Positions 1-15,542 of a stretch of DNA of 64,000 nucleotides are shown in pieces. Below the pieces are notes generated by a model. That model was not told the origin of the DNA, did no database searches, and was given only the letters and a program-made list of their open reading frames with translations. Within the stretch, counting starts at the first letter, position 1, and each line of letters opens with the position of its first letter. Made by a program: the position numbers and the translations under genes. Source of the DNA: Sinomonas atrocyanea (GTDB lineage Bacteria > Actinomycetota > Actinomycetes > Actinomycetales > Micrococcaceae); the NCBI RefSeq assembly GCF_030812675.1, contig NZ_JAUSTE010000006.1:62001-126000 (forward strand), given 5' to 3'.

Positions 1-263
1 TTGCGCTCGTGGTCGATGTGGAGACGGAGGAAGAGCTCGGACAGCCGCGAGCGCAGCACGTCCTCGTGGTCCAGCAGCGTGGTCCACGCCTTCTCGTCCC
101 GGCCGCCGTCGAGGTACGGGCCCTTCAGGAGGCGGACCAGGACGTGGCGGACCCGCAGCGGGAGGACGCCGGTGTCGCCGTCGTACAGGGCCGTGCCGGG
201 CACGAACGGCTCCTCCGGGGCGACCTCGGAGTCCAAGGGGGCGACCTCGGCAGCAGTTTCCAT
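1..263 (-). CDS. jetB: JetB (DUF4194), Wadjet anti-plasmid system, partial at left edge
   Basis: Only the first 87 codons are inside the window; the gene runs leftward past position 1. The start ATG (261-263) overlaps the jetA stop as ATGA, the usual coupling in jetABCD operons. After a variable head the protein reads [14 protein letters not shown], then ALLDHE-like and [14 protein letters not shown] blocks typical of the N-terminus of DUF4194, the MukE/kleisin-associated (KITE-like) subunit of the Wadjet SMC complex. By family knowledge, JetABC forms an SMC loop-extrusion complex and JetD cleaves circular plasmid DNA. The residue 6-17 region contains a 7-residue repeat (EVAP...EVAP) encoded by a 21-bp DNA repeat described separately. 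jetC and jetD should lie to the left, outside this window. Confidence 0.85.
217..250 (+). repeat. 21-bp phased repeat at start of jetB
   Basis: GGGGCGACCTCGG occurs at 217-229 and 238-250, exactly 21 bases apart. On the coding (minus) strand it reads GAGGTCGCCCC twice and encodes EVAPLDS then EVAPEEP. It matches the repeat in the gene at 11963. Confidence 0.8.
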
Positions 264-1777
264 CAGTTCTCCTCCCGGGAGGTCGCAGGGGCCATGGTGC
301 TCCGGACGCCTGCCGGCGCCCCCGCCGGTCCCACGGTCACCGTCGTGTTGGGGACGAAGGCGGTGCGCCGCGTCCCGTCGACCTGTTCGAATTCCAGCGG
401 CGCCCACGCGTCCCGGCCGAAGCCCACGCCCCGGTTGAGCAGGTGCCCGAGGAGCGCGCGGATCGAGTTGATGTGCTGCTCATCGGCGGGCAGCTGGGCC
501 CAGATATCGGGCAGCTCGGCGCGGCCGCCACCTGCCTCGAGGGCCACATCCACGGCTTCCCGCAGCGCCGCGGCCTTGGCCTTCCCCGTGCGGGCGGAGC
601 GGACGCGGTCCTCCCGGCCGAAGGAGATGGGGTCGGCGAGCCGGGGCGGCGGCGCGAGTTCGTCCGGGTCGAAGAGCTTGACCATGGACAGGGACTCGAA
701 CTCTGCGCCGAACAGCTCGGGGGCCGGCGCGAACCCCGACTCCTCGCGGACGTACGGGAGGTGGCGGACGGCCTGCTCCGCCCGCCGGATCGCGTCGCGG
801 AGCCGGACGGACTGGCGGTAGTCGTCGCTCTGGACATAGGTGTTCAGGCTCTCCGAGAGCTTGCCGTAGATGCGCTGGATCTGGGCGTTGGCCTCGCGCA
901 GCTCCGCTACGAGGTGCCGGAGGGTCTCGCGCTCCTCGTGCCCGAGGCCGTCGGCGAAGTCCCGGGAGAGGACCTCGGAGATGGCGCCCCGGAAGCGCAT
1001 CTGCTGCTCGGGGTCATCCAGGAACGCCGTGAACGAGCGGAAGGTGCGGCCCTCGCTGGAGGCGCGCAGCCGGCGGTCCGCCTCGAGGACCTGGGCCATC
1101 GTGGCGCCCTTCGTCAGCGACTCCTCGATGATCTGGTTGCGCAGCTGGCCCACCGAGTCCTCGATGCGGTCCCGCATGCGCTTGAAGTCGGCCGGGACGC
1201 CGGCGGCAAGGTCGAGGATGTTCTCGGCGGCCTCGAGGGCCGTCTCGTCGTCGAGGCTCCCGGTCTGCTCCCCGGCGCGCATGGCCCGCACGAGCTCGAG
1301 CCGCTCCTCGATCTCGGCCTCGAGGGCCTCGATCCTCGCGGTCGTGTCCGGGTTGGTCTCGCGCGCGAGCCTCTCCACGTCGCCGAGGAGTGTGCCGAGG
1401 CGCGATCCGGTCAGCGTGGACCGCTCGGAGGAGAGCGAGTCGAGGAACGCGAGCACGCGCGCCGTCGCCTCGGTGAGCTCGTACACGATCCGGCCGCCGT
1501 GCGCGCGGCGGGCGAGGAACCGGCGGCGGGTCCAGTCGTCGGCCACGGCGCGGCCGGTCGCGGCGCCGGCGGTGGGCGCGGCCCCGGAGGCGGCGTCGTG
1601 GGCGCGGAGGTCCTCGAGGAAGGCGTCGAGCTCCTCGTGGAACTGTTCGAGCTCCACCTGCGGGCGGTTGCGCGAGAACGCGGTCTGCAGCGCGGCGATG
1701 GTCCACGGGGCCGAGCGGGTGAGCGCCCACGCCGGCCCGCGGTGGAGCGACTCGAGCTCGGCGAGGCGGACCAGCAT
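263..1777 (-). CDS. jetA: JetA (DUF3375), Wadjet kleisin-like subunit
   Basis: This 504-residue protein matches the DUF3375 family, the MukF-like JetA/MksF subunit of Wadjet (MksBEFG) condensin-type plasmid defence. The N-terminus ([18 protein letters not shown]) resembles the family's winged-helix start. The middle carries the characteristic coiled-coil segment ([20 protein letters not shown], about residues 150-170), followed by the [14 protein letters not shown] and [18 protein letters not shown] blocks. I chose the ATG at 1777 because the homology begins there and the length fits the family. An upstream GTG at 1876 adds a low-complexity Pro/Ala stretch. No clear ribosome site precedes either start. 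The gene ends in a 4-base overlap with jetB, so the two are translationally coupled. It diverges from the Ter cluster across about 330 bases. Confidence 0.88.
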
Positions 1778-2110
1778 GGCGGACGACGGCGACCCCGCCG
1801 GCGCGGGTCCCTCGCCGCGCGCCGGGGTACGTGCAAGCGAGGGGGCCGGCAGCGGTCGCGGAGAGGGTTCTGGCACGGCTGACCACTCTACCGGGCGTCC
1901 ACCGGGCGTCCACCGGCACGGCAGGAACCCGTCCGGCCGTTCCCCCGTTGGAACACGAGAGAGACTGCTCGGACCGTGGGGATACAGAACTGTCGGCGCC
2001 CCGGGACATAATGGGCCTTGGCTGGTCTGGGGGGAACCGCTCCTCGGCTCGTGCAGCCTACTGATTGCCGCCCGGCACCCCGGGCCTGAACGAGGAGCTC
2101 TGCGCCCTAC
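1778..2110. other. Divergent intergenic region, jetA versus Ter cluster
   Basis: No gene is supported in these 333 bases; the long open frames here are antisense shadows. A direct repeat of ACCGGGCGTCCACC type sits near 1890-1915. A CATAAT hexamer at 2007-2012 could be a -10 box for the rightward DUF475 gene, about 100 bases upstream of its start, but no good -35 partner is visible. This gap must hold the promoters of both the Wadjet operon and the first Ter operon. Confidence 0.4.
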
Positions 2111-3211
2111 GTGTTTCTGAAGACGTTCGGTTGGTCCTTCGGCGTGAGCGCCGTAGCGCTCGTCGTGGCCTTCGTCTACGGGGGCCCGCAGGCCCTCTTC
2201 CTCGCGCTGGTCCTGGGCATCCTCGAGGTGAGCCTGAGCTTCGACAACGCAGTGGTCAATGCCCGCATCCTCGAGCGCATGAACCCGTTCTGGCAGCGGA
2301 TGTTCCTCACCGTCGGCGTCATCATCGCCGTGTTCGGCATGCGGGTGCTGTTCCCGCTGCTCATCGTCGGCGTCACCGCGAAGCTCAACCCGGTCGAGGC
2401 GGTCCAGCTCGCCCTGGCCAAGGGCCCCATCGAGGAGCCGGGCACCTACGCCTACGTCCTCCACCACGCCCACCCGCAGATCGCCGCGTTCGGCGGCATC
2501 TTCCTGCTCATGATCTTCCTCGACTTCATGTTCGAGGACCGCGAACTCAAGTGGCTGCACTGGTTCGAGGCGCCGCTGGCGAGGATCGGCCGGATGAACG
2601 GGGCCTCGCTCGTGGTCGGGCTCTTCGCCCTCGGCCTCATCGGCCAGCTCTCGGGCCCCGAGCTCCAGGGCAGCGTCCTGATGGCCGGCATCTTCGGCAT
2701 GGTGACGTACTTCCTGGTCCAGGGCCTCGGCGAGCTCTTCGACACCGGAGACGAGGACGAGGACGCCGAGCCCTCCGAGCCGGCGGCCGCGGCCGGGACG
2801 CGCCCCAACAAGGCGATCCAGGTGGCCGGCAAGGCCGCGTTCATGCTGTTCCTCTACCTCGAGGTCATCGACGCCTCGTTCTCGTTCGACGGCGTCATCG
2901 GCGCGTTCGCCATCACGTCGGACCCGATCATCATCGCGCTCGGCCTCGGCCTGATCGGCGCGATGTTCGTCCGCTCGCTCACGGTCTACCTCGTCCGCCA
3001 GGGCACCCTCGACGAATTCGAGTACCTCGACCACGGCGCGCACTGGGCCATCGGCGCCCTCGCGGTGATCCTCCTGATCACGATCGGCGTCGAGGTCAGC
3101 GAGGTCATCACCGGCCTCATCGGCGTGGTCTTCATCGGGGCCGCCTTCGTCGCCTCCGTGATGCGCAACCGGCGCAAGGCCCTCGAACCCGAGCACGCCG
3201 CCACCGCCTGA
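2111..3211 (+). CDS. DUF475 family integral membrane protein (TerC-like)
   Basis: This 366-residue polytopic membrane protein belongs to DUF475, a relative of TerC. Two acidic membrane signatures stand out: LSFDNAVVNA (about residues 40-50) and DASFSFDGVIGAFA (about 255-270). This duplicated S-F-D-N/G pattern, with aspartates buried in helices, is what TerC-like proteins use for metal-linked transport. A hydrophilic acidic loop (DTGDEDEDAEPSEP, about 215-230) separates the halves, and the tail is basic. The start is GTG at 2111, without a strong ribosome site. It opens the Ter operon, with terD1 44 bases downstream. Family knowledge links TerC-type proteins with TerD at the membrane in metal stress responses and manganese export. 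The substrate of this copy is unknown. Confidence 0.85.
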   Translation: MFLKTFGWSFGVSAVALVVAFVYGGPQALFLALVLGILEVSLSFDNAVVNARILERMNPFWQRMFLTVGVIIAVFGMRVLFPLLIVGVTAKLNPVEAVQLALAKGPIEEPGTYAYVLHHAHPQIAAFGGIFLLMIFLDFMFEDRELKWLHWFEAPLARIGRMNGASLVVGLFALGLIGQLSGPELQGSVLMAGIFGMVTYFLVQGLGELFDTGDEDEDAEPSEPAAAAGTRPNKAIQVAGKAAFMLFLYLEVIDASFSFDGVIGAFAITSDPIIIALGLGLIGAMFVRSLTVYLVRQGTLDEFEYLDHGAHWAIGALAVILLITIGVEVSEVITGLIGVVFIGAAFVASVMRNRRKALEPEHAATA

Positions 3212-3254
3212 GAAGGACATCCGCACCCTGTAGGGACAACGTAAGGAGCACACC

Positions 3255-3854
3255 GTGGGACTGAGCTTGCAGAAGGGGCAGGGCCTCTCGCTGACCAAGA
3301 AGGACGGCTCTGGCATGACCCAGGTCCGCCTCGGACTGGGATGGGATGCTGTCGAACAGCCCCGCAAGGGACTCTTCGGCAGCCTCTTCGGCGGCGGCGC
3401 CACGGAGATCGACCTGGATGCCTCAGCCATCCTCTACAACGCCGGCCGCCAGCCGCTCGACACGGTCTTCTTCAACCAGCTCACGAGCAAGGACGGCTCG
3501 ATCCGGCACACGGGCGACAACCTCACCGGTGCCGGCGAGGGCGACGACGAGACCATCATGGTCAACCTGCCGTCCGTCAACGGCGCGGTCGAGCACATCG
3601 TCTTCGTCATCACCAGCTACTCGCAGCAGACGTTCAACGAGGTCCGCAATGCGTTCTGCCGGATCGTGGACGACTCCGCCGCCGGCAGCCCCGAGGTGGC
3701 CCGCTACACGCTCACCGAGCAGGGGCCCACCACGGGCATGATCATGGCCAAGCTCTCCCGCGAGGGTGCAGGCTGGAAGTTCACGGCCATCGGGCAGCCT
3801 GCGAACGGCCGCACGGTGGGCGACCTCGTCGGCCCGTCGGCCGCCGTCCTGTAG
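3255..3854 (+). CDS. TerD family stress protein 1
   Basis: This 199-residue protein has the TerD fold, a cytoplasmic Ca2+-binding beta-sandwich found in tellurite/phage/colicin resistance loci. The start GTG is 7 bases after AAGGAG. The N-terminus LQKGQGLSLTKK is the standard TerD opening. The metal-binding region shows EIDLDASA (about residue 55) and GDNLTGAGEGDDE (about 90-103), with the acidic residues that coordinate calcium intact. Compared with its two neighbours it carries a short insertion, QPRKGLFGSLFGGG (about 35-48). Interestingly, a GSLFGG string also begins the unrelated gene at 8819. It is first of three tandem terD genes upstream of telA. Confidence 0.92.
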   Translation: MGLSLQKGQGLSLTKKDGSGMTQVRLGLGWDAVEQPRKGLFGSLFGGGATEIDLDASAILYNAGRQPLDTVFFNQLTSKDGSIRHTGDNLTGAGEGDDETIMVNLPSVNGAVEHIVFVITSYSQQTFNEVRNAFCRIVDDSAAGSPEVARYTLTEQGPTTGMIMAKLSREGAGWKFTAIGQPANGRTVGDLVGPSAAVL

Positions 3855-3887
3855 ACCACCGAACCACCGCACATCACAAGGAGCACC

Positions 3888-4469
3888 GTGGCAAGCCTCA
3901 CCCTCAGCAAGGGCAGCAACCTCTCCCTGACCAAGGCCGATCCCGGCCTCACCCGCGCCATGGTGGGCCTCGGCTGGGACCCGCGCACCACCGCGGGCGA
4001 GATGTTCGACCTCGACGCGAGCGCCCTGCTCGTCTCGGCCCGCGGCAAGGTCCGCAACAACGACGACTTCATCTTCTATAACCAGCTCGAGGCCAAGGAC
4101 GGCTCGGTGGTCCACCAGGGCGACAACCGCACCGGCGAGGGCGAGGGCGACGACGAGCAGATCCTCATCGACCTGACGAAGGTGGCTGGCGACGTCGACA
4201 AGGTCGTCATCGTGGTCTCGATCGACCAGGCGGAGGCGCGGCGCCAGAACTTCGGCATGGTCAGGGGCGCGTTCTGCCGGGTCGTCAACGACGTCACCGG
4301 CCAGGAGGTGGTCCGCTACGACCTCACCGAGGACGCCGCGAGCGAGACCTGCATGATCTTCGCCGAGATCTACCGGCACGGCGGCGAATGGAAGTTCCGC
4401 GCGGTCGGCCAGGGCTACGCGAGCGGCCTGGCCGGGCTGGCCACCGACTTCGGCGTCGTCCTCGACTGA
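3888..4469 (+). CDS. TerD family stress protein 2
   Basis: This 193-residue TerD protein begins with GTG right after ACAAGGAGCACC, the leader shared by all genes in this stretch. It opens with [13 protein letters not shown] and has a complete calcium-site pattern: DLDASALL, then NDDFIFYNQ, then [14 protein letters not shown]. It is very similar to the copy immediately downstream (4504), differing mainly in surface positions, so the two look like a tandem duplication. By family knowledge TerD proteins bind Ca2+ and associate with TerC-like membrane partners. A role in tolerance of tellurite or other oxyanion or envelope stress is inferred from that and from the telA neighbour. Confidence 0.93.
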
Positions 4470-4503
4470 CACCGCATCCGAGACAGAAGAAGGAGCACTT
4501 CAC

Positions 4504-5085
4504 ATGGCGGGACTGACCCTGACCAAGGGCGGCAATCTCTCTCTGACCAAGACCGATCCCGGCCTCACCAAGGCGATCGTGGGGCTCGGCTGGGATCCGC
4601 GGACGACGACGGGCGACGCCTTCGACCTCGACGCGTCGGCGCTGCTCGTGGGAGCCAGCGGCAAGGTCCGCTCCGACGCGGACTTCATCTTCTACAACCA
4701 GAAGCAGTCCCCCGACGGCGCGGTGACCCATCTGGGCGACAACCGCACGGGCGAGGGCGAGGGCGACGACGAGCAGATCCAGGTCGACCTGACCAAGGTG
4801 GCGGCGGACGTCGAGCGCATCGTCGTGGTGGTGAGCATCGACCAGGCCGAGGGCCGCCGGCAGAACTTCGGCATGGTCCGCTCGGCGTACTGCCGGATCG
4901 TCAACGAGGGCACGAACGCCGAGGTGGTCCGCTACGACCTCTCCGAGGACGCCGCGAGCGAGACCTGCATGATCTTCGCCGAGCTCTACCGCAACGCCGG
5001 CGAATGGAAGTTCAAGGCTGTCGGCCAGGGCTACGCGAGCGGCCTCGCCGGCGTCGCGACCGACTTCGGCGTGAACCTCGGCTGA
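4504..5085 (+). CDS. TerD family stress protein 3
   Basis: This 193-residue TerD paralogue starts with ATG after AAGGAGCACTTCAC. Key features are [13 protein letters not shown] at the start, [21 protein letters not shown] and [14 protein letters not shown], so the calcium-binding acidic residues are all present. It ends [17 protein letters not shown], nearly identical to the end of the preceding copy. It is third of the tandem terD genes and lies 38 bases before telA. The repeated leader and tight spacing suggest one transcript from DUF475 through telA. Confidence 0.93.
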
Positions 5086-5123
5086 CGCAGCCCTCCCACC
5101 CACCTTCTGCAAGGAGCACCTCG

Positions 5124-6326
5124 ATGTCCATCTCCCTGACCCCGCCGGATCCCACCGAGTCCGAGAACGCCCTCGTGCTGCAGGCGCCGGAGCCCGCCCC
5201 CGTCATCCAGGAGGAGCAGGCCCCCGGCATGGTCCCGGTCCCCACCGAGCGCCAGACCGAGATCGCCAGCCAGGCGAAGGCCTACGTGGCCGAGATCGCC
5301 GCGATGGACTCGCGCAGCCCGGAGTTCCAGCAGAAGGTCGAGGGCCTCAACCGGTTCGCCGGGCGGGAGATGGTCGCGTCCTCGGACGCCTCGAGCAGGA
5401 TGCTCGACCGCTCGAGCACCTCCCTCGCGAGTGCCAAGAAGTCGAACAACAGTGCGCAGATGTACGTCGCGTCCACGCTCGGCGAGCTGCGCTCCACCGT
5501 CGAGGACCTCACCCCGGGCCAGGAGCTCAGTGCGGGCCGGAAGATCCTGGGCTTCGTGCCGGGCGGGAACAAGCTGGCCCGCTACTTCCAGCGCTACGAG
5601 TCGGCCCAGACCCAGCTGGACAAGATCATCAAGTCGCTCATGGCCGGCCAGGACGCCCTCATGAAGGACAACGCCTCGCTTGCCCAGGAGAAGACGAACC
5701 TCTGGGAGACGATGAAGCAGCTGTCGGAGTACGCGGTCTTCGCCCAGGAGCTGGACAGGGCCACGGTCGAGAAGATCGAGGAGGTCCGCCGCAGCGGCCA
5801 GACCGAGCACGCGCAGCAGCTCGAGTCGGACGTGCTGTTCCCGGTGCGCCAGCGCCGCCAGGACATCCTCACCCAGCTCGCCGTCTCGGTGCAGGGCTAC
5901 CTCGCGATCGACATGATCCGGAAGAACAACACCGAGCTCATCAAGGGCGTGGACCGCGCCCGCACCACCACGATCAGCGCCCTCCGCACTGCCGTGATCG
6001 TCGCGCAGGCGCTCGCCAACCAGAAGCTCGTCCTGGACCAGATCGACGCGATCAACACGACGACGAACAACATGATCCTGCGCACCTCGGAGATGCTGAA
6101 GGACCAGACCGCGCGCATCCACCAGCAGGCCTCCTCCTCGGGCGTCTCGGTCCAGACGCTCGAGAAGGCGTTCGCGAACATCTACCAGACGATGGATGCC
6201 ATCGACACGTTCCGCTCGCAGGCGGCCAAGAGCATGGAGAGCACGGTCCAGGCGCTCGAGACGGGCCTCGAGAAGTCGCGCCCGTACATCGAGCGCGTGC
6301 GCCGGCAGGAGGGCAACGCGGGCTAG
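5124..6326 (+). CDS. TelA-type toxic anion resistance protein
   Basis: This 400-residue, mostly helical cytoplasmic protein belongs to the TelA/KlaA family linked to tellurite and other toxic-anion resistance. Its start ATG at 5124 follows AAGGAGCACCTCG. Family blocks visible are SLGELRSTVEDLTPG-like text (about 115-130), GRKILGFVPGGNKLARYFQRY (about 140-160), KTNLWETMKQLSEY (about 190) and IRKNNTELIKGVDRARTTT (about 270-290), which is the most conserved TelA segment. Residues 300-400 are predicted coiled coil. The biochemical function of TelA is not established in the literature I know. It ends the first Ter operon, and its stop codon shares the CTAG tetramer at 6323-6326 with the stop of the opposing gene. 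Confidence 0.92.
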   Translation: MSISLTPPDPTESENALVLQAPEPAPVIQEEQAPGMVPVPTERQTEIASQAKAYVAEIAAMDSRSPEFQQKVEGLNRFAGREMVASSDASSRMLDRSSTSLASAKKSNNSAQMYVASTLGELRSTVEDLTPGQELSAGRKILGFVPGGNKLARYFQRYESAQTQLDKIIKSLMAGQDALMKDNASLAQEKTNLWETMKQLSEYAVFAQELDRATVEKIEEVRRSGQTEHAQQLESDVLFPVRQRRQDILTQLAVSVQGYLAIDMIRKNNTELIKGVDRARTTTISALRTAVIVAQALANQKLVLDQIDAINTTTNNMILRTSEMLKDQTARIHQQASSSGVSVQTLEKAFANIYQTMDAIDTFRSQAAKSMESTVQALETGLEKSRPYIERVRRQEGNAG

Positions 6327-7540
6327 GCCTGGTCGCCGGCCTCGTCCTCGTCGTCGAAGCCCTCCTCGAACTCGTCCTCGTCCCCGGCCTCCTCCTCGTA
6401 GTCCACGACCGCGTCGTACACGGCGTCGAGGGCGGGGACGGGCACGTTGACCATGCCGTCCGAGGTGTCGGCGAGGCCGAGGGCCTCGAGCTCGCGGATC
6501 TCGCGCAGCAGGGCCTCCGAGAGGCCCTGGAGCTGCTGGGCGGCCCCGGGGCCGAGCTCATCCTCGTCCTCCTCGGCCTCGCCGTCCTCGGCGAGGCCGG
6601 TGCCCAGGGACGCGACGTCCTCGAGGGGGAACGGCTGCTGGTGGACCGCGGCGGTGAGGATCGTCGTGAGCACGGCGGCGGTCTCGCCGTCCGGAGTCCC
6701 GGGAGCACCGTCGGTGCACGCGGCGACCACGATCTCCGTGCCGAGGAACTGGGCCTCGAGCCGCCCGAGCCCGTCGGTGCCGCCCAGATCCGCGGCGCCC
6801 TCGCCGGCGCGGGCCACGCCGCCGGCGGTGTCCACGAGCTCGGCGTTGACCATGGCCTCCCAGAGCCTCTGGGCGCGGGCCTCGGAGCCGACCACCTCGG
6901 CGGCGGACGCCAGCGCGTCGGCCGGGAGGGTCGCGTCCGGGGTGACCTCGCGGCCGGTGCCGAGCCAGTCGAGCAGTGCCCGGGCGTGCTGCACGAACGG
7001 GGCACCGGAGGCGAAGGCTGCGGCCTCCTCCTCGCTGGCCTGGGGCAGGTTGGCCCGGGGCCCCTCGTCGACGATCCCGCCGAGCGCCTCGGCCTGCGCG
7101 TCGAGCACCTCGGCGACGGCCTCGAGCTCCTCGGCGGTCCCCTCCCAGCGGCCGGTCTCCTCGAGGAAGGTGAGCCAGTCGATCAGGGTGCCGATCACGT
7201 AGCGCTGGTCGTCGATCGACTGGTCCTCGTTGTCCGCGGCGGCGGCGACGTCCTCGAGGAACGGCGGGAGGAAGCCGGCCACGTGGTCGGGGTCGAGCCG
7301 GAGGGACGGCGTGCCCTTGGCGAGGCTCGAGACGATCGTGACGAACATCTTCACGACGGTAAGCTGGCCGGCCGCGAAGCCCGCGAGGTCGGCCTCCTCC
7401 CGCGAGGCCCAGGCGACGTACTCGGGGGTGAGGCCGTCGATCATGAGGTCGATGCTGCGGCGCCGCCGCTCGTAGTCGTTCCTCGAGGTCGTGGTGCGCG
7501 GGCGGGTGTTCTTCGGCTTGCGTGTGCGGCTCTTCGGCAT
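6323..7540 (-). CDS. Conserved hypothetical protein with acidic C-terminal tail
   Basis: I do not recognise a named family in this 405-residue protein. It opens with a strongly basic stretch (MPKSRTRKPKNTRPRTTTSR) followed by DYERRRRSIDLMIDGLTPEYVAWASREEADL, which looks like a conserved helical module. The middle is helical and acidic. The last 35 residues are almost all Asp and Glu (YEEEAGDEDEFEEGFDDEDE), a charge polarity that could suit binding a basic partner or divalent metal. It is not secreted: there is no signal peptide or membrane helix. It lies between the two Ter operons but on the opposite strand, converging on telA with overlapping stops. Whether it belongs to the Ter system is unknown. 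Confidence 0.75.
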   Translation of the reverse strand: MPKSRTRKPKNTRPRTTTSRNDYERRRRSIDLMIDGLTPEYVAWASREEADLAGFAAGQLTVVKMFVTIVSSLAKGTPSLRLDPDHVAGFLPPFLEDVAAAADNEDQSIDDQRYVIGTLIDWLTFLEETGRWEGTAEELEAVAEVLDAQAEALGGIVDEGPRANLPQASEEEAAAFASGAPFVQHARALLDWLGTGREVTPDATLPADALASAAEVVGSEARAQRLWEAMVNAELVDTAGGVARAGEGAADLGGTDGLGRLEAQFLGTEIVVAACTDGAPGTPDGETAAVLTTILTAAVHQQPFPLEDVASLGTGLAEDGEAEEDEDELGPGAAQQLQGLSEALLREIRELEALGLADTSDGMVNVPVPALDAVYDAVVDYEEEAGDEDEFEEGFDDEDEAGDQA

Positions 7541-8818: not shown

Positions 8819-9355
8819 ATGGTCGGGAAGTTCTTCGGATCGCTGTTCGGCGGGGCCGGGCGCGAGCCCGAGCATGGCCTCGACGAGCAGCTGCCCCTCA
8901 CCCAGGCCCAGGAGCTCGAGCAGACGCGCGGGGCCCTCGGGACGCTGCGCAGCGCCATCCGCCGCGCGGGTTCCGTGCTGCCCACGCTCGCGTCCTCGCG
9001 GGTCCGGCAGACCGACGACCTCCTGGCAGGACTCATCGACTACATCGCCGAGCACGGCGCCTCCACCGAGCAGCGGGTCCTGCTCAACGCGATCGTCACC
9101 GACTACCTCCCCACGTCGCTGCGCGTCTACCGCGCCCTGCCGCCCTCCACCCACACGGACTCGAGCCCCGAGTCGGAGAAGCTGCTCGAGCAGCTGGACA
9201 TCCTGCACTCGACTGCCCTCGACCTGGACAACCAGGTCCGCACCGGGGCCCTCGCCGAGCTCAGCGTCCATGGGCGCTTCCTGCAGGACAAGTTCGACGT
9301 CGGCGGCATCCGCCTCACCTCAGCTCCGCAATCCCGAGAAGGAGACGCACTCTGA
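8819..9355 (+). CDS. Unknown protein, first gene of second Ter operon
   Basis: This 178-residue soluble protein has no family I can name. It starts MVGKFFGSLFGGAG, and the GSLFGG piece also appears as an insertion in terD1 at 3255. The body is predicted helical (LTQAQELEQTRGALGTLRSAIRRAGSVLP, then SRVRQTDDLLAGLIDYIAEHG), with a heptad-like region near LLEQLDILHSTALDLDNQV. Its stop overlaps the ATG of the TerD gene at 9355 (TGATG), so translation is coupled and a role with TerD is likely. The start ATG is about 90 bases from the divergent marR start. Confidence 0.75.
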   Translation: MVGKFFGSLFGGAGREPEHGLDEQLPLTQAQELEQTRGALGTLRSAIRRAGSVLPTLASSRVRQTDDLLAGLIDYIAEHGASTEQRVLLNAIVTDYLPTSLRVYRALPPSTHTDSSPESEKLLEQLDILHSTALDLDNQVRTGALAELSVHGRFLQDKFDVGGIRLTSAPQSREGDAL

Positions 9356-9930
9356 TGGCCACGATGGTCGCAGGCAGCAATGCCGCCCTCACCGCGGAGA
9401 ACCCCGGGCTCGGCGGGGTGATGGTGGCGATGGGCTGGCAGACCGTGCCGAGCAACGGCCCCCAGTCCGAGCTCACCTCGCTCGCGATCATCTGCGGTGA
9501 GGACGGGCACGCCCTCTCTCCCGAGCACCTCGTCTTCTTCAATCAGCTCACGACGGCGGGCGGCGGCGTCCGCTTCACCGGCGGCGAGGACGGCGCGCAC
9601 GGCGCGACGCACGACCAGGAGCAGATCGACGTCGAGTTCGGGCTCATCCCGGCCGAGGTCGCCAAGATCGCGTTCCTCGCCTACGTGGACCCGGAGGTGC
9701 GCGGCCCGGGGACCTTCGGCGCCGTGCGCAGCGCCTACATCCGGCTCGCCCGGCCCGACGGCTCGGAGCTCCTGCGCTTCGACGTCCCGGAGCTGCACGG
9801 GGACCGGATCAAGGCCATGATGTTCGGCGAGCTCTACCGGCACCGCGACGACTGGAAGTTCCGGGCCCTCGGCCAGGGCTACGAGAACGGCCTCGCCGGC
9901 GTCTCCCGCGACTTCGGGCTCGACCTCTGA
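9355..9930 (+). CDS. Divergent TerD family protein with altered calcium site
   Basis: This 191-residue protein is recognisably TerD (GLGGVMVAMGWQT, LVFFNQLT, LYRHRDDWKFRALGQGYENGLAG), but its metal site is changed. The D-L-D-A-S-A segment of the other copies is ELTSLAIIC here, and the G-D-N-x-T-G-x-G-E-G-D-D-E loop is GGEDGAHGATHDQEQ. Several calcium-coordinating aspartates are therefore missing, so it may bind calcium weakly or act as a non-binding partner. It lacks the usual L-x-K-G-x-N-L-S-L opening, having AGSNAALTAENPG instead. It overlaps the genes on both sides by one base (TGATG), the tightest coupling in the cluster. Confidence 0.88.
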   Translation: MATMVAGSNAALTAENPGLGGVMVAMGWQTVPSNGPQSELTSLAIICGEDGHALSPEHLVFFNQLTTAGGGVRFTGGEDGAHGATHDQEQIDVEFGLIPAEVAKIAFLAYVDPEVRGPGTFGAVRSAYIRLARPDGSELLRFDVPELHGDRIKAMMFGELYRHRDDWKFRALGQGYENGLAGVSRDFGLDL

Positions 9931-10697
9931 TGAAGGGCCTGGCTGGCTCCGATGTGCCGTTCATGACCCGGCGGGTCAAGGCGCCCGCGCCGGTGGCTGA
10001 GCCCCGGCGAAACCCCGAACCGGTGGCTGAGCGCAGCCGAAACCCCCTCGAGCTCGGCGAACCCACGGTCCCCGCCCCACCTCCCTCCGCCGGCGTGCCG
10101 TCCGCCGGCCTCGACCTCTCCCCCGCCCCGGCCGCCGGGGGCCAGTCCGCCGTCGCGGCGCGCCACCCCGGCCCGGCCACGCTCGAGTCCCGCCTGTACC
10201 CGGCACCGGCGTTCGGCGAGCTCCACCAGCTCGCGGAGGGCGCCGCCGTCGTGCGCCTGAACCCGCGCCAGTCCGGGATCGGGTCCCTCTTCGTCACCGG
10301 CGCGCGCGGCACGGCCTGGGAGGGCGAGGACCGCACCACGGGGGCACAGAGCGTGCACCGGGAGCAGATCGGCACCCCCATCCCGACCCCCGGGAACCGG
10401 CCGCTCGTGGGCTTCGTTAATCGGGACGCCGTCGTGGTGCTGCGCCATGTGCGCAGGCTCCGCCGGGCCCTGTTCATCGGGGCCGGCGGGACCATGACGG
10501 TCCAGACCTTCGACGGCTCGGCCATCGCGGTCCAGGGCACCCTGGGCCCGGGCCAGCGCACGGTCCTGACCGCGACCCGCATCGGCGCGCTCCTCGAGCT
10601 GCGCGCCGAATCGGTCCCCGAGGACTGGGACGACGGCGAGATCTGGCGCGAGTTCGCCTTCACGATGACCGTGGGACTGGGAGGCCTGCGGCGCTAG
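9930..10697 (+). CDS. Unknown protein of Ter operon with inserted 30-bp repeat
   Basis: This 255-residue protein starts at an ATG that overlaps the upstream terD stop. Residues 1-100 are low-complexity and Pro/Ala-rich, including PVAEPRRNPE followed by PVAERSRNPL, an in-frame decapeptide repeat from two 30-bp DNA repeats. Residues 105-255 form a compact domain (RLNPRQSGIGSLFVTGARG, QSVHREQIG, FVNRDAVVVLRHVRRLRRALFIG, then beta-rich text ending AFTMTVGLGGLRR). The last half resembles a TerD-like beta-sandwich in pattern, but I cannot assign it firmly. There is no signal peptide. The next gene follows after a 90-base gap, so it may end a three-gene unit. Confidence 0.7.
   Translation: MKGLAGSDVPFMTRRVKAPAPVAEPRRNPEPVAERSRNPLELGEPTVPAPPPSAGVPSAGLDLSPAPAAGGQSAVAARHPGPATLESRLYPAPAFGELHQLAEGAAVVRLNPRQSGIGSLFVTGARGTAWEGEDRTTGAQSVHREQIGTPIPTPGNRPLVGFVNRDAVVVLRHVRRLRRALFIGAGGTMTVQTFDGSAIAVQGTLGPGQRTVLTATRIGALLELRAESVPEDWDDGEIWREFAFTMTVGLGGLRR
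9991..10050 (+). repeat. Two tandem 30-bp repeats inside coding sequence
   Basis: Two units begin at 9991 and 10021. Each starts CGGTGGCTGAGC and continues with GAAACCCC after a variable 6-base core. They lie in frame in the variable N-terminal region of the gene at 9930. Motifs of the type GGTTGAGC...GAAACC are widespread intergenic repeats in actinobacteria as far as I recall, so this looks like a REP-type element that entered a tolerant linker. Confidence 0.75.
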
Positions 10698-10787
10698 CCC
10701 GGCCGCGCACCCGGCGGTCCCGACCACTCGGCCCCGCGACTCGCGGAGCCGCCCTGTTCCTGCACGCACCGACACCTGGGGGACCCC

Positions 10788-11966
10788 GTGCTGCACTACT
10801 CGTACCTGACCGCGAGCACCCGTGAGCGGCTCTTCGCCCGGCGGCCGCGGGAGCTGGGTCCCGACAGCGGCGCGGAGGCGCTCGCCGTCGGCCTCGGTGC
10901 CACGCTCTACACGCCGGGCACCCGGCCGGGCCTCGCCGAGGGGATCCTCCGCCGAGCCCGCTCCGGCTGCACGAGCACCGTGCTGTGCCTCGAGGACGCC
11001 GTCCCCGACTCGGCGGTGGAGAGCGCCGAGGACAACGTGGCCGGGGCCCTGGCCGAGCTTGCGGGGCTCGAGGCGCCGGCCCGGGCGCGGACGCTGCCGC
11101 TGCTGTTTGTGCGGCCCCGCTCGCCCGAGCAGCTGCTCGCCCTCGGCCGCCGGCTCGGGGACGCCGCAGAGATCCTCACGGGCTTCGTGCTCCCCAAATT
11201 CGAGAACTCCTCGGGCCGCGCCGAGCGGTTCCTCGAGGCCCTCGGGCAGCTCAACGCCGAGCTCTCGCCGCGGGTGCCGCTGCGGGCCATGCCCATCATC
11301 GAGCACCCGGTGACCACGCACCGGGAGAGTCGGCCGGAGGCCCTGCTCGCCGTCCGCGACCTGCTCGAGGCCCACCGCGAGCTCATCCTGTCGGTGCGGA
11401 TCGGGGCCACGGACATCGCCTCCGCCTACGGCCTGCGGCGCTCGCGCGACCTGACCATCTACCACGTGGCCGTGGTCGCAGAGGTGATCGCGGACGTGGT
11501 GGGCATCCTCGGCCGGGCCGACGGCGGGTGGGTCGTCTCCGGTCCCGTCTGGGAGCACTACACGAACACCGAGCGGATCCTGCGGCCCCTCCTGCGCGCC
11601 ACACCGTTCGATGCCGCGAACTCGGGCGTGCTGCGCGAGCAGCTGCTCGGTGCGAACCTCGACGGGCTCCTGCGCGAGATCGAGCTCGACCTGGCCAACG
11701 GCCTGCTCGGCAAGACGGTGATCCACCCCTCCCACGTCCCGCTCGTGCACGCGCTCCACGTCGTGGCGCACGACGAGTACGTCGACGCCGTGGACATCAT
11801 GGCGGCCGAGGGCGGCGGGGCGGTCGCGTCCCGCTCCGGCGTGCGGATGAACGAGGCCAAGCCCCACCGGGCGTGGGCCCGCCGCACCCTCCTGCGCGCC
11901 GACGCCTTCGGCGTCGCCCGGCCGGACGTGACCTTCGTGGACCTGCTGGAAGCGAGCATGAAGTGA
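10788..11966 (+). CDS. HpcH/HpaI aldolase / citrate-lyase-beta-like protein of Ter module
   Basis: This 392-residue protein has the CitE/HpcH TIM-barrel fold. Visible family elements are ATLYTPGTRPGLAEGI near the start, the acidic metal/CoA-site strand STVLCLEDAVPDS (about residues 63-75), LFVRPRSPEQ, FVLPKFENS, MPIIEHP, SVRIGATDIASAYGLRR and GKTVIHPSHV near the end. It probably makes or breaks a C-C bond beside a carboxylate. In Ter gene clusters a CitE-like enzyme accompanies phosphoribosyltransferase and HAD genes in a predicted nucleoside-like biosynthetic pathway (Anantharaman, Iyer and Aravind). The start is GTG at 10788. Its stop overlaps the start of the next gene (GTGA), so the two are coupled. 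Confidence 0.88.
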   Translation: MLHYSYLTASTRERLFARRPRELGPDSGAEALAVGLGATLYTPGTRPGLAEGILRRARSGCTSTVLCLEDAVPDSAVESAEDNVAGALAELAGLEAPARARTLPLLFVRPRSPEQLLALGRRLGDAAEILTGFVLPKFENSSGRAERFLEALGQLNAELSPRVPLRAMPIIEHPVTTHRESRPEALLAVRDLLEAHRELILSVRIGATDIASAYGLRRSRDLTIYHVAVVAEVIADVVGILGRADGGWVVSGPVWEHYTNTERILRPLLRATPFDAANSGVLREQLLGANLDGLLREIELDLANGLLGKTVIHPSHVPLVHALHVVAHDEYVDAVDIMAAEGGGAVASRSGVRMNEAKPHRAWARRTLLRADAFGVARPDVTFVDLLEASMK

Positions 11967-14677
11967 CAAGCACCGCCGAGGTCACCCCGTGGGACCGCGA
12001 GGTCACCCCGCCGGAGGACGAGTGGCCCGGCACGGTGGTCCGCGACCGCCTGGGGATCACGCTCGCGACGGCGCCGGGCAGCCTCCTGCCCGTCGCCGCC
12101 CTCGTGGGCTTCGCGGTGCGGCGCAACCCGAAGCGGGCCCAGCTGCTCGTCTCGCGCGTCCTCGCCAAGCACGTGCCCACCTCGCCGGCGCTCGCCCTCG
12201 GCGCCGCCCGGCTCCTCGGCGCGGCCGTGGCCCGCGAGCTGGGGCTCACTCCCGCAGACCACACGGCCCCGGGGCCCCCGCTGGAGGAGGCCGCCCGGGC
12301 GCTCCTGGCCCGCCTCGCCGGGGACGCGCCGTCGGACGCGCCGCCCCTCCCCCTGCCGGCGCCGCCCGCCGGCGGCGAGCAGATCGCGACCCTCGGCTAT
12401 GCCGAGACCGCCACGGGCCTCGGCCATGTAGTCGCCGAGTACCTCGGCTCGTACTACCTCCACTCGACGCGGCTGAGCACGCCCGTGCGTCCCTTCGGCG
12501 GCTTCGAGGAGGAGCACTCGCATGCGACGGGGCACGCCCTCGTGCCGAGCGACCCCACGCGCCTCGCCCGAGCCGCCACCGTGGTGCTGGTCGACGACGA
12601 GCTCTCTACCGGCCGCACCGTCCTCAACACGGTGCGCGAGCTGCACGCCGCCTGGCTCCCGGAGGCCGCGCACGACGCCGGCCCCTCCGCCGGCACCCCG
12701 CCTCGCCGGCGGTACGTGGTCGCCACCCTGGTTGACCTTCGCTCGGCCGAGGACCGCGCCGAGTTCGAGCGGCTCGCCGACGAGCTCGGGTGCGCCCTGA
12801 CGGTGGTGGCGCTCGGGGAGGGATCGGTGGGCCTGCCCGCCGGTGTCCTCGAGCGGGCCGCACACTGGCTGGCCGAGTCCCCCGGCCCCGCGGTCCCATC
12901 GGGCGACCTCGCGCCCCCACCGGGCGACCTCGCGCACCTACGGGGTGACCTCGGCACGGTCCGGAGCGCGCGGTTCGGCGTCGACACCGCCGGTCCCCAC
13001 GGGGTCCGGCTCGCGGAACTCGCCGCCCCCGCAGCGCGCGCCGCGTCCGCGGCCCTCGCCCGGGCCGGGGTCCCGCGGGACGGCCGGGTCCTCGTGCTCG
13101 GCGCGGAGGAGCACCTCGCGCTGCCCCTCGCCATCGCCGACGCCCTCGCCGCCGACGTCCCCGGCGTCCTCGTCTCCTCGACCACCCGCTCGCCCGTGCA
13201 CGTCCACGACGAGCCCGGCTACGCGGTTCGCTCCGCGCTGACGTTCGCCTCCCACGACCACGCCCTCGACGGCGCGCCGGGCACCGGCCGCCGGCACGCC
13301 TACAACGTCCTGCCCCCCGGGGAGCGCTTCGACGCCATCGTCTATGTGCCCGAGCCCGGCACCGAGCCTGAGGACCTCGCCTCCCCGGGCAGCCCGGGAA
13401 CGGAGGCCCACGGCGAGCCCGGCGTCAACGAGGCGCTCGCCCGGGCGGCGCGCACCGTCGTCGTGCTCCACCTCGGCGCCGAGCCGCCGTACGCCGAGCC
13501 GCTGCGCGGCGGCGCCCATTCCGGGGGCTTCGGCTCCTACCCGCCCGAGGACGTCGGCTGGCTGCTCAAGGACCTCTCGGGCGCGCGCCTCGAGGCGCCG
13601 GCCCACGAGCGCGAGGCCGCGATCCAGTCCGGCCGGGCGAGCTACGCCGAGTCGCTGCCGCAGGAGTACGAGCCGAGCCCCGAGTACCAGGCGCTGTTCC
13701 ACGAGGCCCTCGCGGCATCCGGGCAGCCCATCGCGCAGGCCGTCGCGGACGTCACCGAGCAGGTCCTCGCCCTGCGCGGGCGGGAGCCGGTGCTCGTCTC
13801 GCTCGCCCGGGCAGGGACTCCCGTCGGGGTGCTCATGCGCCGCTGGGCCGCGCACGCCCACGGGCTCGACGTGCCGCACTACACGATGAGCATCGTGCGC
13901 GGCCTCGGGATCGACGCCAACGCGCTGCGCTGGCTGCTCACCCGCCACCGGCCCGAGCAGATCATGTTCGTGGACGGCTGGACCGGCAAGGGCGCGATCG
14001 CGCGGGAGCTCGCCGCGGCGCTCGGGGACTTCGCCGCCTCCGACGGGGTGCGCCTCTCCTCCGAGCTCGCCGTCCTGGCGGACCCGGGGCGCTGCGTGCG
14101 GGTGTTCGGCACCCGGGACGACTTCCTCATCCCCTCGGCCTGCCTCAACTCGACCGTCTCGGGGCTCGTGTCCCGCACGGTGTTCAACCGCGCGCTGGTC
14201 GGCCCGCACGAGACGCACGGGGCCAAGTTCTACCGCGAGCTCGCCCCCCGGGACGTCTCGAACGAGTTCGTCGACGCGGTGGCCGCGCACTTCCCCGGCG
14301 TCCGTCCGCGGCTGCCCGGGCCCCTCGCCGAGCCCACGTGGGCCGGCTGGGCGGCCGTCGAGCGGATTGCCGCGGAGCAGGGCCTCGGCCCACTCGAGCA
14401 CGCGGTCAACCTCGTCAAGCCCGGCGTCGGGGAGACCACCCGCGTGCTGCTGCGCCGGGTCCCCTGGAAGGTGCTCGCGCGCCCGGAGCTGCTGGCCACG
14501 GACGACGCCGGCCGCCTCCTGCACGGCGACCTCGCCCACGTGCTCCTGCTCGCCGCCCAGCGGGGCGTTCCGGTGGAGCCGTCGGACGGCCTGCCGTACA
14601 GCTGCGTGGGGATCATCCATCCGCGCTTCACCCCCGGCGCGACCGGGGCCGACGGCAGGGCGGTGCGCGATGTCTAG
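11963..14677 (+). CDS. Multidomain PRTase-TRSP-StiP-PELOTA protein of Ter biosynthetic module
   Basis: This 904-residue protein joins modules usually described separately in Ter clusters. Residues about 30-300 are a phosphoribosyltransferase domain with the PRPP loop VVLVDDELSTGRT (about 207-219). A repeat-coded linker (SGDLAPPPGDLAHLRGDL, about 313-330) follows. Residues about 338-500 look like a TRSP domain (GVRLAEL, VLVLGAEEHLALPLAIA, VSSTTRSPVHVHDEPGY). From about 525 a StiP-type domain begins (PEDVGWLLKDLSG, REAAIQSGRASYAESLP, PVLVSLARAGTPVGVLMRR, IMFVDGWTGKGAI). The last 75 residues resemble the PELOTA RNA-binding domain (LLHGDLAHVLLLAAQRGVPVE). The start GTG at 11963 overlaps the upstream stop. 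The catalytic product is unknown; a modified nucleoside-like compound has been predicted for this gene set. Confidence 0.88.
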   Translation: MTSTAEVTPWDREVTPPEDEWPGTVVRDRLGITLATAPGSLLPVAALVGFAVRRNPKRAQLLVSRVLAKHVPTSPALALGAARLLGAAVARELGLTPADHTAPGPPLEEAARALLARLAGDAPSDAPPLPLPAPPAGGEQIATLGYAETATGLGHVVAEYLGSYYLHSTRLSTPVRPFGGFEEEHSHATGHALVPSDPTRLARAATVVLVDDELSTGRTVLNTVRELHAAWLPEAAHDAGPSAGTPPRRRYVVATLVDLRSAEDRAEFERLADELGCALTVVALGEGSVGLPAGVLERAAHWLAESPGPAVPSGDLAPPPGDLAHLRGDLGTVRSARFGVDTAGPHGVRLAELAAPAARAASAALARAGVPRDGRVLVLGAEEHLALPLAIADALAADVPGVLVSSTTRSPVHVHDEPGYAVRSALTFASHDHALDGAPGTGRRHAYNVLPPGERFDAIVYVPEPGTEPEDLASPGSPGTEAHGEPGVNEALARAARTVVVLHLGAEPPYAEPLRGGAHSGGFGSYPPEDVGWLLKDLSGARLEAPAHEREAAIQSGRASYAESLPQEYEPSPEYQALFHEALAASGQPIAQAVADVTEQVLALRGREPVLVSLARAGTPVGVLMRRWAAHAHGLDVPHYTMSIVRGLGIDANALRWLLTRHRPEQIMFVDGWTGKGAIARELAAALGDFAASDGVRLSSELAVLADPGRCVRVFGTRDDFLIPSACLNSTVSGLVSRTVFNRALVGPHETHGAKFYRELAPRDVSNEFVDAVAAHFPGVRPRLPGPLAEPTWAGWAAVERIAAEQGLGPLEHAVNLVKPGVGETTRVLLRRVPWKVLARPELLATDDAGRLLHGDLAHVLLLAAQRGVPVEPSDGLPYSCVGIIHPRFTPGATGADGRAVRDV
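11978..12009 (+). repeat. 21-bp phased repeat at N-terminus of PRTase fusion gene
   Basis: GAGGTCACCCC occurs at 11978 and again at 11999, exactly 21 bases apart, coding EVTPWDR then EVTPPED. The same core and spacing occur in reverse in this gene's linker (12901-12953) and at the start of jetB (217-250). Confidence 0.8.
12901..12953 (+). repeat. Three 21-bp phased repeats in interdomain linker
   Basis: GGGYGACCTCG begins at 12901, 12922 and 12943, an exact 21-base period. The array codes a proline-rich linker between the phosphoribosyltransferase and TRSP domains, where extra residues would be tolerated. Confidence 0.8.
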
Positions 14678-15542
14678 GCCGCTCGTGGCGTGCGACCTCG
14701 ACCGCACCCTCATCTACTCCGCGAAGGCGCTCCACCTCGACGGCCCCGACCAGGACGCTCCGCGGCTCGTGGTGAGCGAGGTGTACGAGAACGCCCCGCT
14801 GAGCTACATGACCCGCGTGGCGGAGGACCTCCTGCACGAGCTGGACGGCCACGCCGTTTTGGTCCCGGTGACCACCCGGACCCAGGCCCAGTTCGCCCGC
14901 GTCCAGCTCCCCGCCACCCCGTACGCGATCACCACCAACGGAGGCGTCCTCCTGCACCACGGGACGCCCGACGGCGCGTGGTCCGCGCGGGTGCGCGGCG
15001 CCGTCGGGCGCGGCTCGGCACCCATCGGCGAGGTTCTGGCACGCCTGTGCGAGAACGATCCGCCGTGGGTGGAGCGGGTCCGGACGGCCGAGGACCTGTT
15101 CGCCTACGCGATCGTCAACCGGGCAGCGTTGCCGGACGAGTGGCTCGCCGAGCTCACGGACTGGTGCGCCGGGCGCGGCTGGATCGTCTCGCTCCAGGGG
15201 CGCAAGCTCTACTGCGTCCCGGCGGCAGTGACCAAGGAGGCCGCCGTTGCCGAGGTGATGGACCGGACGGGGTCAGCGCGGCTCATCGCCGCCGGCGACT
15301 CGCTGCTCGACCGGGGGCTCCTCGAGCTGGCCGACGTGGCCCTGCGCCCCCGCCATGGCGAGCTCGAGGCCGTGTGCTACACCCACCCCGGGCTGCAGGT
15401 GACGGATAGCGCGGGGGTCCTGGCGGGCGAGGAAATCCTCCGCGCGGCGCTGGAGGCCGCGCGCGTCCTGCCTGCCCGCGCTCAGCCGACGGCGGCGGAC
15501 GCGGAGGCGTCCTTGGCCCATTCCTCGGCCATGAGGCGGTAG
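14670..15542 (+). CDS. HAD family hydrolase of Ter module
   Basis: This 290-residue protein has HAD motif I in [12 protein letters not shown], with nucleophile Asp9 and Asp11, a Thr-rich motif II strand ([11 protein letters not shown], about residues 62-72), a Cof-type cap, and motif IV as [14 protein letters not shown] (about 210). It is probably a phosphatase acting on a phosphorylated intermediate of the upstream phosphoribosyltransferase pathway. The ATG at 14670 overlaps the end of the fusion gene by 8 bases, so it is translationally coupled. Its last 61 bases overlap the end of the convergent LLM oxidoreductase gene, and the extra C-terminal residues ([15 protein letters not shown]) look unconserved. 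Confidence 0.88.

What the first reader, a model, noticed from the sequence alone, without database searches (positions are those of the whole stretch)
8819..15542. Ter-associated biosynthetic operon with a four-module fusion
The CitE-like, PRTase/TRSP, StiP/PELOTA and HAD genes are the enzymes predicted to make a nucleoside-like metabolite in Ter systems. Here PRTase, TRSP, StiP-like and PELOTA parts form one 904-residue protein, and every junction from 10788 on is an overlapping start/stop. The usual ATP-grasp partner is absent from the window. The product and purpose are not established experimentally as far as I know, so this is a good candidate for an uncharacterised pathway.
Basis: partly seen in the sequence, partly recalled or inferred. 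Interest (0 to 1): 0.75.

Follow-up and report, generated by a model that had tools for sequence, protein, structure and literature searches.

The report
Ter-linked nucleoside operon, fused enzyme
A soil bacterium carries a small set of genes, linked to stress-resistance genes, that looks built to make an unidentified nucleoside-like molecule; the fused enzyme at its centre turns out to be the usual form in its relatives, including what is almost surely Streptomyces, so the unknown product could be hunted in ordinary laboratory strains.

Summary
One 904-residue protein (11963-14677) carries PRTase_2, TRSP, StiP and PELOTA_1, all over Pfam cut-off, between a CitE-like lyase gene and a HAD phosphatase gene with overlapping junctions, in a TerC/TerD/TelA island of a Sinomonas genome. 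The pathway is known as a 2012 prediction (seen here only through later papers); no held paper that my searches found names its product. The fusion is not special: 14 of 16 TRSP-bearing genomes in an actinobacterial draw have it in one frame. It joins two genes that are two-module genes elsewhere. New here: (1) no dedicated ATP-grasp over cut-off in this genome, and none in the actinomycete ter loci scanned, so this is an ATP-grasp-less variant; (2) TRSP is in 118 of 121 genomes of a large genus, inferred to be Streptomyces, while the ATP-grasp is in 47 and never seen beside it; (3) StiP, named a cysteine protease, models as a PyrR-like phosphoribosyltransferase and has no invariant cysteine in 21 rows; (4) its PELOTA tail matches archaeal L7Ae. 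Best reading: PRPP-dependent synthesis of a nucleoside-like compound, the second PRTase tied to RNA. Product and role stay unknown. A new variant of a known kind.

The parts
2111..3211 (+). TerC (DUF475/TerC) membrane protein, first gene of the same ter island
   Evidence: Pfam DUF475 3.5e-127, TerC 1.1e-18
3255..5085 (+). three TerD-family genes (3255-3854, 3888-4469, 4504-5085)
   Evidence: Pfam TerD 1.3e-49, 4.5e-81, 1.2e-82
5124..6326 (+). TelA (start estimated at the internal MSISL methionine; the ORF opens at 5004)
   Evidence: Pfam TelA 7.6e-87; ORF
8819..9355 (+). 178-aa protein of unknown family, first gene of the biosynthetic half; homologues in all ten Sinomonas and Arthrobacter loci L032-L041
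   Evidence: no Pfam, NCBIfam or PADLOC hit at E 0.01; tblastn
9355..9930 (+). TerD-family protein
   Evidence: Pfam TerD 1.9e-45
9930..10697 (+). 255-aa protein of unknown family; among L018-L051 its homologues were seen only in L032-L041 (Sinomonas, Arthrobacter); linker holds two copies of a 23-bp repeat, one with 3 mismatches
   Evidence: no Pfam hit; tblastn; alignment A2; repeats
10788..11966 (+). CitE-like TIM-barrel C-C bond lyase, 392 aa
   Evidence: PF15617 1.3e-107; E69 D70 R109 E172 R204 D209 H313 invariant in 20 rows
11963..14677 (+). 904-aa four-module fusion PRTase_2-TRSP-StiP-PELOTA_1
12101..12823 (+). module PRTase_2 (aa 47-287) with PRPP loop VLVDDELSTGRT
   Evidence: Pfam 1.3e-55; loop invariant in the 15 rows of A1 except positions 214 and 218
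12992..13378 (+). module TRSP (aa 344-472)
   Evidence: Pfam 9.5e-23
13532..14281 (+). module StiP (aa 524-773), models as a PyrR-like PRTase; loop FVDGWTGKGAI
   Evidence: Pfam 9.1e-103; AlphaFold2 plus Foldseek
14339..14620 (+). module PELOTA_1 (aa 793-886), L7Ae-like domain
   Evidence: Pfam 8.4e-25; profile hits archaeal L7Ae at 1.7e-4
14670..15542 (+). HAD-fold phosphatase, 290 aa
   Evidence: D9 D11 T13 T68 K189 D210 D214 invariant in 20 rows; TIGR01486 0.004, far below its cut-off
11977..12008 (-). two copies of the dispersed repeat GGGYGACCTCG, 21 bp apart, in the N-terminal extension of the fusion
12901..12953 (+). three copies of the same repeat in the PRTase_2-TRSP linker

Best explanation
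This is an ATP-grasp-less, actinomycete form of the Ter-linked biosynthetic module. SHOWN by sequence or predicted model: two PRPP-type phosphoribosyltransferase modules (PRTase_2 and the PyrR-like StiP), a CitE-like C-C lyase and a HAD phosphatase that keep their conserved motifs, and an L7Ae-like tail. INFERRED: PRTase_2-TRSP couples a base-like compound to PRPP to give a nucleotide; the CitE-like enzyme makes or breaks a C-C bond on it or on its precursor; HAD removes the 5'-phosphate, giving a nucleoside-like small molecule; TerD-type proteins bind the product near the membrane with TerC and TelA as a stress response. The StiP-PELOTA half would be a second PRTase whose action is tied to, or gated by, a structured RNA. 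In actinomycetes the two PRTase genes mostly became one protein, fixing the enzymes at 1:1 and perhaps channelling the intermediate. The ATP-grasp step (perhaps an amide or peptide-like decoration) is dispensable, so the actinomycete product may be a shorter version.
For: Modules and neighbours. Conserved motif residues in CitE and HAD over 20 chosen rows each, reaching Klebsiella, Pseudomonas and two viral-collection contigs. PRPP-type loops in both PRTase modules. The separate StiP-PELOTA model (pLDDT 77, pTM 0.82) matches PyrR with probability 1.00, 3.8-4.3 A over about 145 columns in its best chains, and a phage PRTase in the viral library (probability 1.00). The full-length model (pLDDT 66) has PRTases as its first seven hits. 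PELOTA profile matches L7Ae, 1.7e-4. L080 (host unknown) has the order CitE, PRTase_2-TRSP, StiP-PELOTA, HAD as separate overlapping genes, then a small ORF and an ATP-grasp. A profile made from the ATP-grasps of L053, L055, L080, L081 finds none in the actinomycete ter loci among L032-L075 or in the window. TRSP in 118 of 121 genomes of genus g9, strong ATP-grasp in 47 of 121.
Against: No substrate or product is known, and no solved structure matches the fusion by sequence (best E 0.03, PyrR). Foldseek E-values are weak: none under 0.001 for the full-length model, where a Rab GTPase ranks at place 8 and more follow; for StiP-PELOTA the first-ranked hit is a PLP enzyme (selenocysteine lyase, probability 0.69, 18 A), and other PLP enzymes and a capsule polymerase also appear. 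The PRPP-loop pattern was not found in PRTase_2 of the Clostridiaceae MAG L048. PRTase folds can be regulators without catalysis. Loss of the ATP-grasp is not confined to actinomycetes: L048 and the Rhizobium locus L054 show none either. That Ter proteins use the product is guilt by association.
Confidence: 0.6

Rival explanations
1. StiP is a stress-induced cysteine protease, as Pfam and public annotation name it, and the operon is a protein-quality or stress-protease system rather than a small-molecule pathway.
For: Family name PF11202 'Tellurite-like stress resistance cysteine protease StiP'; public plasmid annotations use it.
Against: In 21 chosen StiP rows no cysteine is invariant or all-but-one: Cys727 is I, M, I in the Klebsiella, Rhizobium and Pseudomonas rows, and Cys711 is V in the Clostridiaceae row and R in the Pseudomonas row. 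The model matches PRTases, and no cysteine protease is among the 50 PDB hits listed of 1399.
Confidence: 0.07
2. The PRTase modules are mainly sensors or regulators: like PyrR, StiP-PELOTA binds an RNA and switches on PRPP or a nucleotide, controlling the ter genes rather than making a metabolite.
For: Closest fold PyrR (weakly by sequence, on PRTase_2); L7Ae-like tail.
Against: The neighbouring CitE-like lyase and HAD keep their motif residues across phyla, which points to chemistry; PyrR itself is described as bifunctional in entry titles.
Confidence: 0.15
3. A salvage or degradative pathway: the PRTases run backwards to strip a damaged or foreign nucleotide, CitE cleaves the released adduct, HAD clears phosphorylated debris.
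For: Same enzyme set; CitE-like enzymes include cleaving lyases (recalled); no ATP-grasp step in this form.
Against: The ATP-grasp ligase of the loci L053, L055, L080 and L081 suits building better than breaking; an inference.
Confidence: 0.15

Closest known systems
Ter-associated biosynthetic module (Anantharaman, Iyer and Aravind 2012; known here through passages and citations in PMC8115787 and PMC7824862 and through Pfam family descriptions, the paper itself not held)
   Same: CitE-like lyase, PRTase_2-TRSP, StiP-PELOTA and HAD beside TerC, TerD, TelA
   Different: No ATP-grasp in the locus and none over cut-off in the genome; the two PRTase genes fused into one protein
Klebsiella variicola pKP187 ter locus (NC_011282.1, L053)
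   Same: All four modules plus CitE and HAD
   Different: ATP-grasp, PRTase_2-TRSP, HAD, StiP-PELOTA, CitE as separate genes in another order
Tsukamurella tyrosinosolvens plasmid 14 (NZ_LR134456.1, L052)
   Same: Same order CitE, PRTase, StiP, HAD with overlapping genes, Ter genes beside
   Different: PRTase_2-TRSP and StiP-PELOTA are two genes
PyrR family
   Same: Closest solved fold for the StiP module; both link a PRTase fold with RNA (PyrR recalled)
   Different: Separate L7Ae-like domain; loop FVDGWTGKGA instead of LVDDVLYTGRT
L7Ae/eL8 kink-turn proteins
   Same: K-x-G-x-x-E-x-T-[KR] core and profile match
   Different: The Asn before the Glu is Gly or Ala in the rows used (input); joined to a PRTase

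Membership tests
Ter-associated biosynthetic module | PRTase_2-TRSP | tested here: met
Ter-associated biosynthetic module | StiP (PRTase_1, recalled name) with PELOTA | tested here: met
Ter-associated biosynthetic module | CitE-like C-C bond lyase PF15617 | tested here: met
Ter-associated biosynthetic module | HAD phosphatase | tested here: met
   no Pfam hit, but weak homology to the HADs of classical ter loci and all HAD motif residues
Ter-associated biosynthetic module | ATP-grasp PF15632 | tested here: not met
   filed therefore as an ATP-grasp-less variant, not as a full member
Ter-associated biosynthetic module | linkage to TerC, TerD, TelA | tested here: met
Ter-associated biosynthetic module | makes a nucleoside-like metabolite | not testable with these tools
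   prediction only
Type I phosphoribosyltransferases (StiP module) | PRTase fold | tested here: met
   PyrR matches with Foldseek probability 1.00, TMt 0.46-0.54; a predicted model only, E-values near 1e-3, first-ranked hit a PLP enzyme
Type I phosphoribosyltransferases (StiP module) | PRPP loop with two acidic residues (motif recalled) | tested here: inconclusive
   IMFVDGWTGKGAI has one acidic residue
Cysteine proteases (name StiP) | conserved catalytic cysteine | tested here: not met
   no Cys column invariant or all-but-one in 21 rows
L7Ae-like RNA-binding domain (PELOTA module) | sequence similarity and RNA-contact motif (contact role recalled) | tested here: met
   the Asn of the classical N-E pair is Gly or Ala
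L7Ae-like RNA-binding domain (PELOTA module) | binds RNA | not testable with these tools
   -

The most novel reading that the evidence does not exclude
The StiP-PELOTA half is an RNA-acting phosphoribosyltransferase: a PyrR-like catalytic fold held on a kink-turn RNA by its L7Ae-like tail, which exchanges or installs the pathway's unusual base in that RNA (or is switched on by it). The end product of the Ter biosynthetic module would then be a modified RNA, not a free metabolite, and the fusion would pass the new nucleotide from the first PRTase straight to the RNA-bound one.
Probability: 0.1. Interest if true: 0.85.

Novelty: new variant of a known kind. Interest (0 to 1): 0.5.

Why it matters
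Ter loci are widespread and linked to tellurite, stress, phage and colicin resistance (passages), yet in the papers I could see what their biosynthetic half makes is still a prediction. Three results make that question easier to test. TRSP is in 118 of 121 genomes of a genus that is almost surely Streptomyces, which is tractable and easily profiled by mass spectrometry. The set here is three proteins (lyase, fusion, HAD) with no ATP-grasp, so the pathway might be rebuilt in vitro. And the name 'cysteine protease StiP', which stands on many plasmid genes, is probably wrong and hides a PyrR-like PRTase with an L7Ae-like tail.

Tried and rejected
TRSP as a degenerate second PRTase domain: profile comparison of PRTase_2 with TRSP aligns the expected strands but is not significant (P 0.012, probability 3.5%), so it stays a conjecture. 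The same comparison also failed to link PRTase_2 with StiP (probability 0.4%), so it is too weak here to argue either way.

ATP-grasp supplied from elsewhere in the genome: PF15632 is unspecific at its cut-off (12 of 14 control genomes over it; only 1 of 14 at E 1e-20). In the 9 Sinomonas, 2 family and 2 order genomes searched the matches are 24.8-30 bits, some just over the 29.1 cut-off, and lie in frames over 1000 aa, carbamoyl-phosphate-synthase-like by length (recalled), except one of 27.4 bits in a 352-aa frame of G397. In genus g9, 47 of 121 genomes have a match at E 1e-20: in 20 it shares a contig with TRSP and lies 0.41 Mb or more away (distances), in 26 it is on another contig, so linkage is not formally excluded there, and 1 (G582) has no TRSP. 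Four such stretches (L076-L079) were fetched; my ATP-grasp profile finds the gene and a crude gene map shows no obvious operon, but the neighbours were not identified.

A known defence system: PADLOC found none in five genes of the biosynthetic half nor in TelA; the TerD 9355-9930 was not given. Chance or artefact: excluded by the E-values and by orthologues in one frame. Frameshifted StiP in Sinomonas sp. ASV486 (L037; L030, L031 and L074 are from G409, whose contig has the same length, 436,047) was noted as broken and left so. A Bacillota-wide survey and a second structural aligner were not possible.

Full report
WHAT IS THERE. The window is G000:C6:62001-126000 of a 4.12-Mb genome in 32 contigs. 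The nearest named relative of the fusion protein is Sinomonas atrocyanea, 87% in the best segment. That the genome's genus is Sinomonas is inferred: G409 of the same genus has a contig of the same length, 436,047, as the named Sinomonas sp. ASV486 record. The biosynthetic genes are a CitE-like lyase (10788-11966), the 904-aa fusion (11963-14677) and a HAD phosphatase (14670-15542), preceded by a 178-aa protein, a TerD and a 255-aa protein. Pfam places PRTase_2, TRSP, StiP and PELOTA_1 along the fusion, each over its cut-off. TerC, three TerD and TelA lie upstream at 2111-6326 on the same strand, separated by three minus-strand genes, an unknown 405-aa protein, an isochorismatase-like and a MarR-like protein. 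The finding is therefore one half of a larger ter island.

THE FUSION IS ORDINARY IN THIS LINEAGE. TRSP was found in 16 of 396 genomes drawn across the phylum, own genome included. Read directly, 14 of those 16 have all four modules in one open frame, and 2 are split between TRSP and StiP (L066, L068). Of 13 StiP-bearing genomes among 98 relatives (9 of 15 in the genus), 8 are in one frame, 3 split, 1 frameshifted inside StiP, and 1 lacks the upstream modules because the contig ends. Of 20 loci from named genomes, 16 are in one frame; a Streptomyces (L051) and a Clostridiaceae MAG (L048) are split, 1 is frameshifted, 1 is cut by the contig end. These counts are, recounted; the three sets overlap in genomes. 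In genus g9, TRSP is in 118 of 121 genomes, the three misses being drafts in 810 to 1420 contigs. In 112 of the 118 the TRSP frame is 814 aa or longer, which suggests but does not prove the fusion; the 11 g9 genomes of the phylum draw were read directly and all are fused. Outside actinomycetes the modules come as two genes: Klebsiella and Rhizobium PRTase_2-TRSP plus StiP-PELOTA; in Pseudomonas, and in L048 at the stricter limit, the TRSP part was not recovered by BLAST (L048 was at E 9e-5). Tsukamurella, an actinomycete, has the window's order still as two genes. A quick tree of the StiP-PELOTA region (42 rows, 41 labelled) needs at least 5 changes between fused and split (shuffled mean 9.9, none of 500 as low), with all plasmid, viral and Clostridiaceae rows split. 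That fits one or a few fusions with later splits. So the four-module fusion is a junction of two two-module genes.

THE ATP-GRASP. PF15632 finds the ATP-grasp in the ter loci of Klebsiella, Pseudomonas and two viral-collection contigs. A profile built from those four was run over six-frame translations of L032-L081 and the window; at E 1 it finds those four and the separate stretches L076-L079 that were fetched because they carry one, nothing else. The short loci L001-L031 were not scanned. Loci reach at most about 9 kb on either side, several much less, so more distant genes would be missed. Two loci outside actinomycetes, the Clostridiaceae MAG L048 and Rhizobium L054, also show none, so absence is not a mark of actinomycetes alone. 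The own genome has no match over the cut-off. In genus g9 a match at E 1e-20 is present in 47 of 121 genomes, 46 of which also have TRSP; the 20 on a shared contig are 0.41 Mb or more apart and 26 are on other contigs. L080, of unknown host, is the informative comparison: CitE, PRTase_2-TRSP, StiP-PELOTA and HAD in the window's order as separate overlapping genes, then a 188-aa ORF and an ATP-grasp. I infer that the ATP-grasp step is a late, dispensable one.

WHAT THE MODULES DO. Motif residues of CitE and HAD are invariant in 20 chosen rows each that reach Klebsiella, Pseudomonas and viral contigs (their catalytic roles are recalled from the superfamilies). PRTase_2 keeps a PRPP loop of the usual kind in every locus checked except L048, where the pattern was not found. 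StiP keeps FVDGWTGKGAI with small changes (VDSWTGKG in L054, VDGWIGKG in L048, VDAWTGKG in L075). No solved structure matches the fusion by sequence; the best, weak, is PyrR on PRTase_2 (E 0.03). The full-length model is mediocre (pLDDT 66, pTM 0.57) with PRTases as its first seven Foldseek hits, none under E 0.001, and Rab GTPases from place 8. The separate StiP-PELOTA model is better (pLDDT 77, pTM 0.82). Its PDB hits include PyrR at probability 1.00, orotate and hypoxanthine PRTases at lower probability or larger deviation, but also PLP enzymes, one of them first by E-value (probability 0.69, 18 A), and a capsule polymerase; no cysteine protease is among the 50 shown of 1399. In the viral library a phage PRTase is second (probability 1.00). 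No cysteine is invariant over 21 StiP rows. The name 'cysteine protease StiP' is therefore probably wrong. I did not find its experimental source. The PELOTA profile matches archaeal L7Ae (1.7e-4) over the K-x-G-x-x-E-x-T-[KR] core; that 1rlg and 4bw0 among the hits hold RNA is recalled.

WHAT IS KNOWN. The 2012 paper that predicted the pathway is not held. [quoted passage not shown] it also reports that terZ-F in trans is enough for tellurite resistance in E. coli. PMC7824862 (passages and one section) describes the Ter system as nucleotide-signal synthesis plus TerB/TerD ligand binding, a proposal. PMC9933665 and PMC10318531 were seen in passages only. Searches of the held library (listings only unless named above) showed me no paper naming the product or describing the actinomycete form; most listed papers were not opened, and the library lacks most subscription journals.

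VERDICT. A real, well-conserved operon of a predicted but uncharacterised pathway, in an actinomycete variant: two PRTase genes fused and no ATP-grasp. Interest lies in the tractability and in the StiP re-reading, not in the fusion itself.

Noticed in passing
window 11977-12008 and 12901-12953 (also 218-249, 3818, 6940): GGGYGACCTCG occurs 9 times in the window (0.48 expected, 0 of 100 shuffles as many), 5 of them inside the fusion gene, in linkers of EVTP/GDLAP type whose copy number differs between Sinomonas species. Pairs spaced 21 bp are found in 6 of 15 Sinomonas genomes, 9 in this one (3 of them in this gene) and 86 in G399, none for the reversed control pattern. Other genera were not searched. 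It looks like a dispersed repeat that enters protein linkers.
   Followed up: partly
window 9992-10044: Two copies of another 23-bp repeat (GGTGGCTGAGCGCAGCCGAAACC, and one with 3 mismatches) sit in the linker of the 255-aa gene; none in 100 shuffles.
   Followed up: no
window 263-1900 (minus) and L082 (G000:C6:54001-63900): JetA, JetB and JetC (Wadjet or MksBEF-like condensin) genes lie just upstream of the ter island; JetD was not found in four neighbouring ORFs tested. JetA is in 14 of 15 Sinomonas genomes, also in six without StiP; in 7 of the 8 genomes that have both it lies within about 20 kb of StiP.
   Followed up: partly
window 6323-7540 (minus): A 405-aa protein without Pfam match at E 1 between the two ter halves, found again in other Sinomonas loci (L032, L033, L034, L036; pieces in L037, L073).
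   Followed up: no
L037, L030, L031, L074: The fusion gene is frameshifted inside StiP in Sinomonas sp. ASV486 and in G409, whose contig has the same length, so probably the same strain: a sequencing error or a dead gene.
   Followed up: no
L052 6420-7619; similar stretches in 24 other loci: A 399-aa protein without Pfam match at E 1 lies between TerC and CitE in Tsukamurella and recurs, whole or as its C-terminal half, near the loci of Streptomyces and other actinomycetes, but not in the Sinomonas and Arthrobacter loci L032-L041.
   Followed up: no
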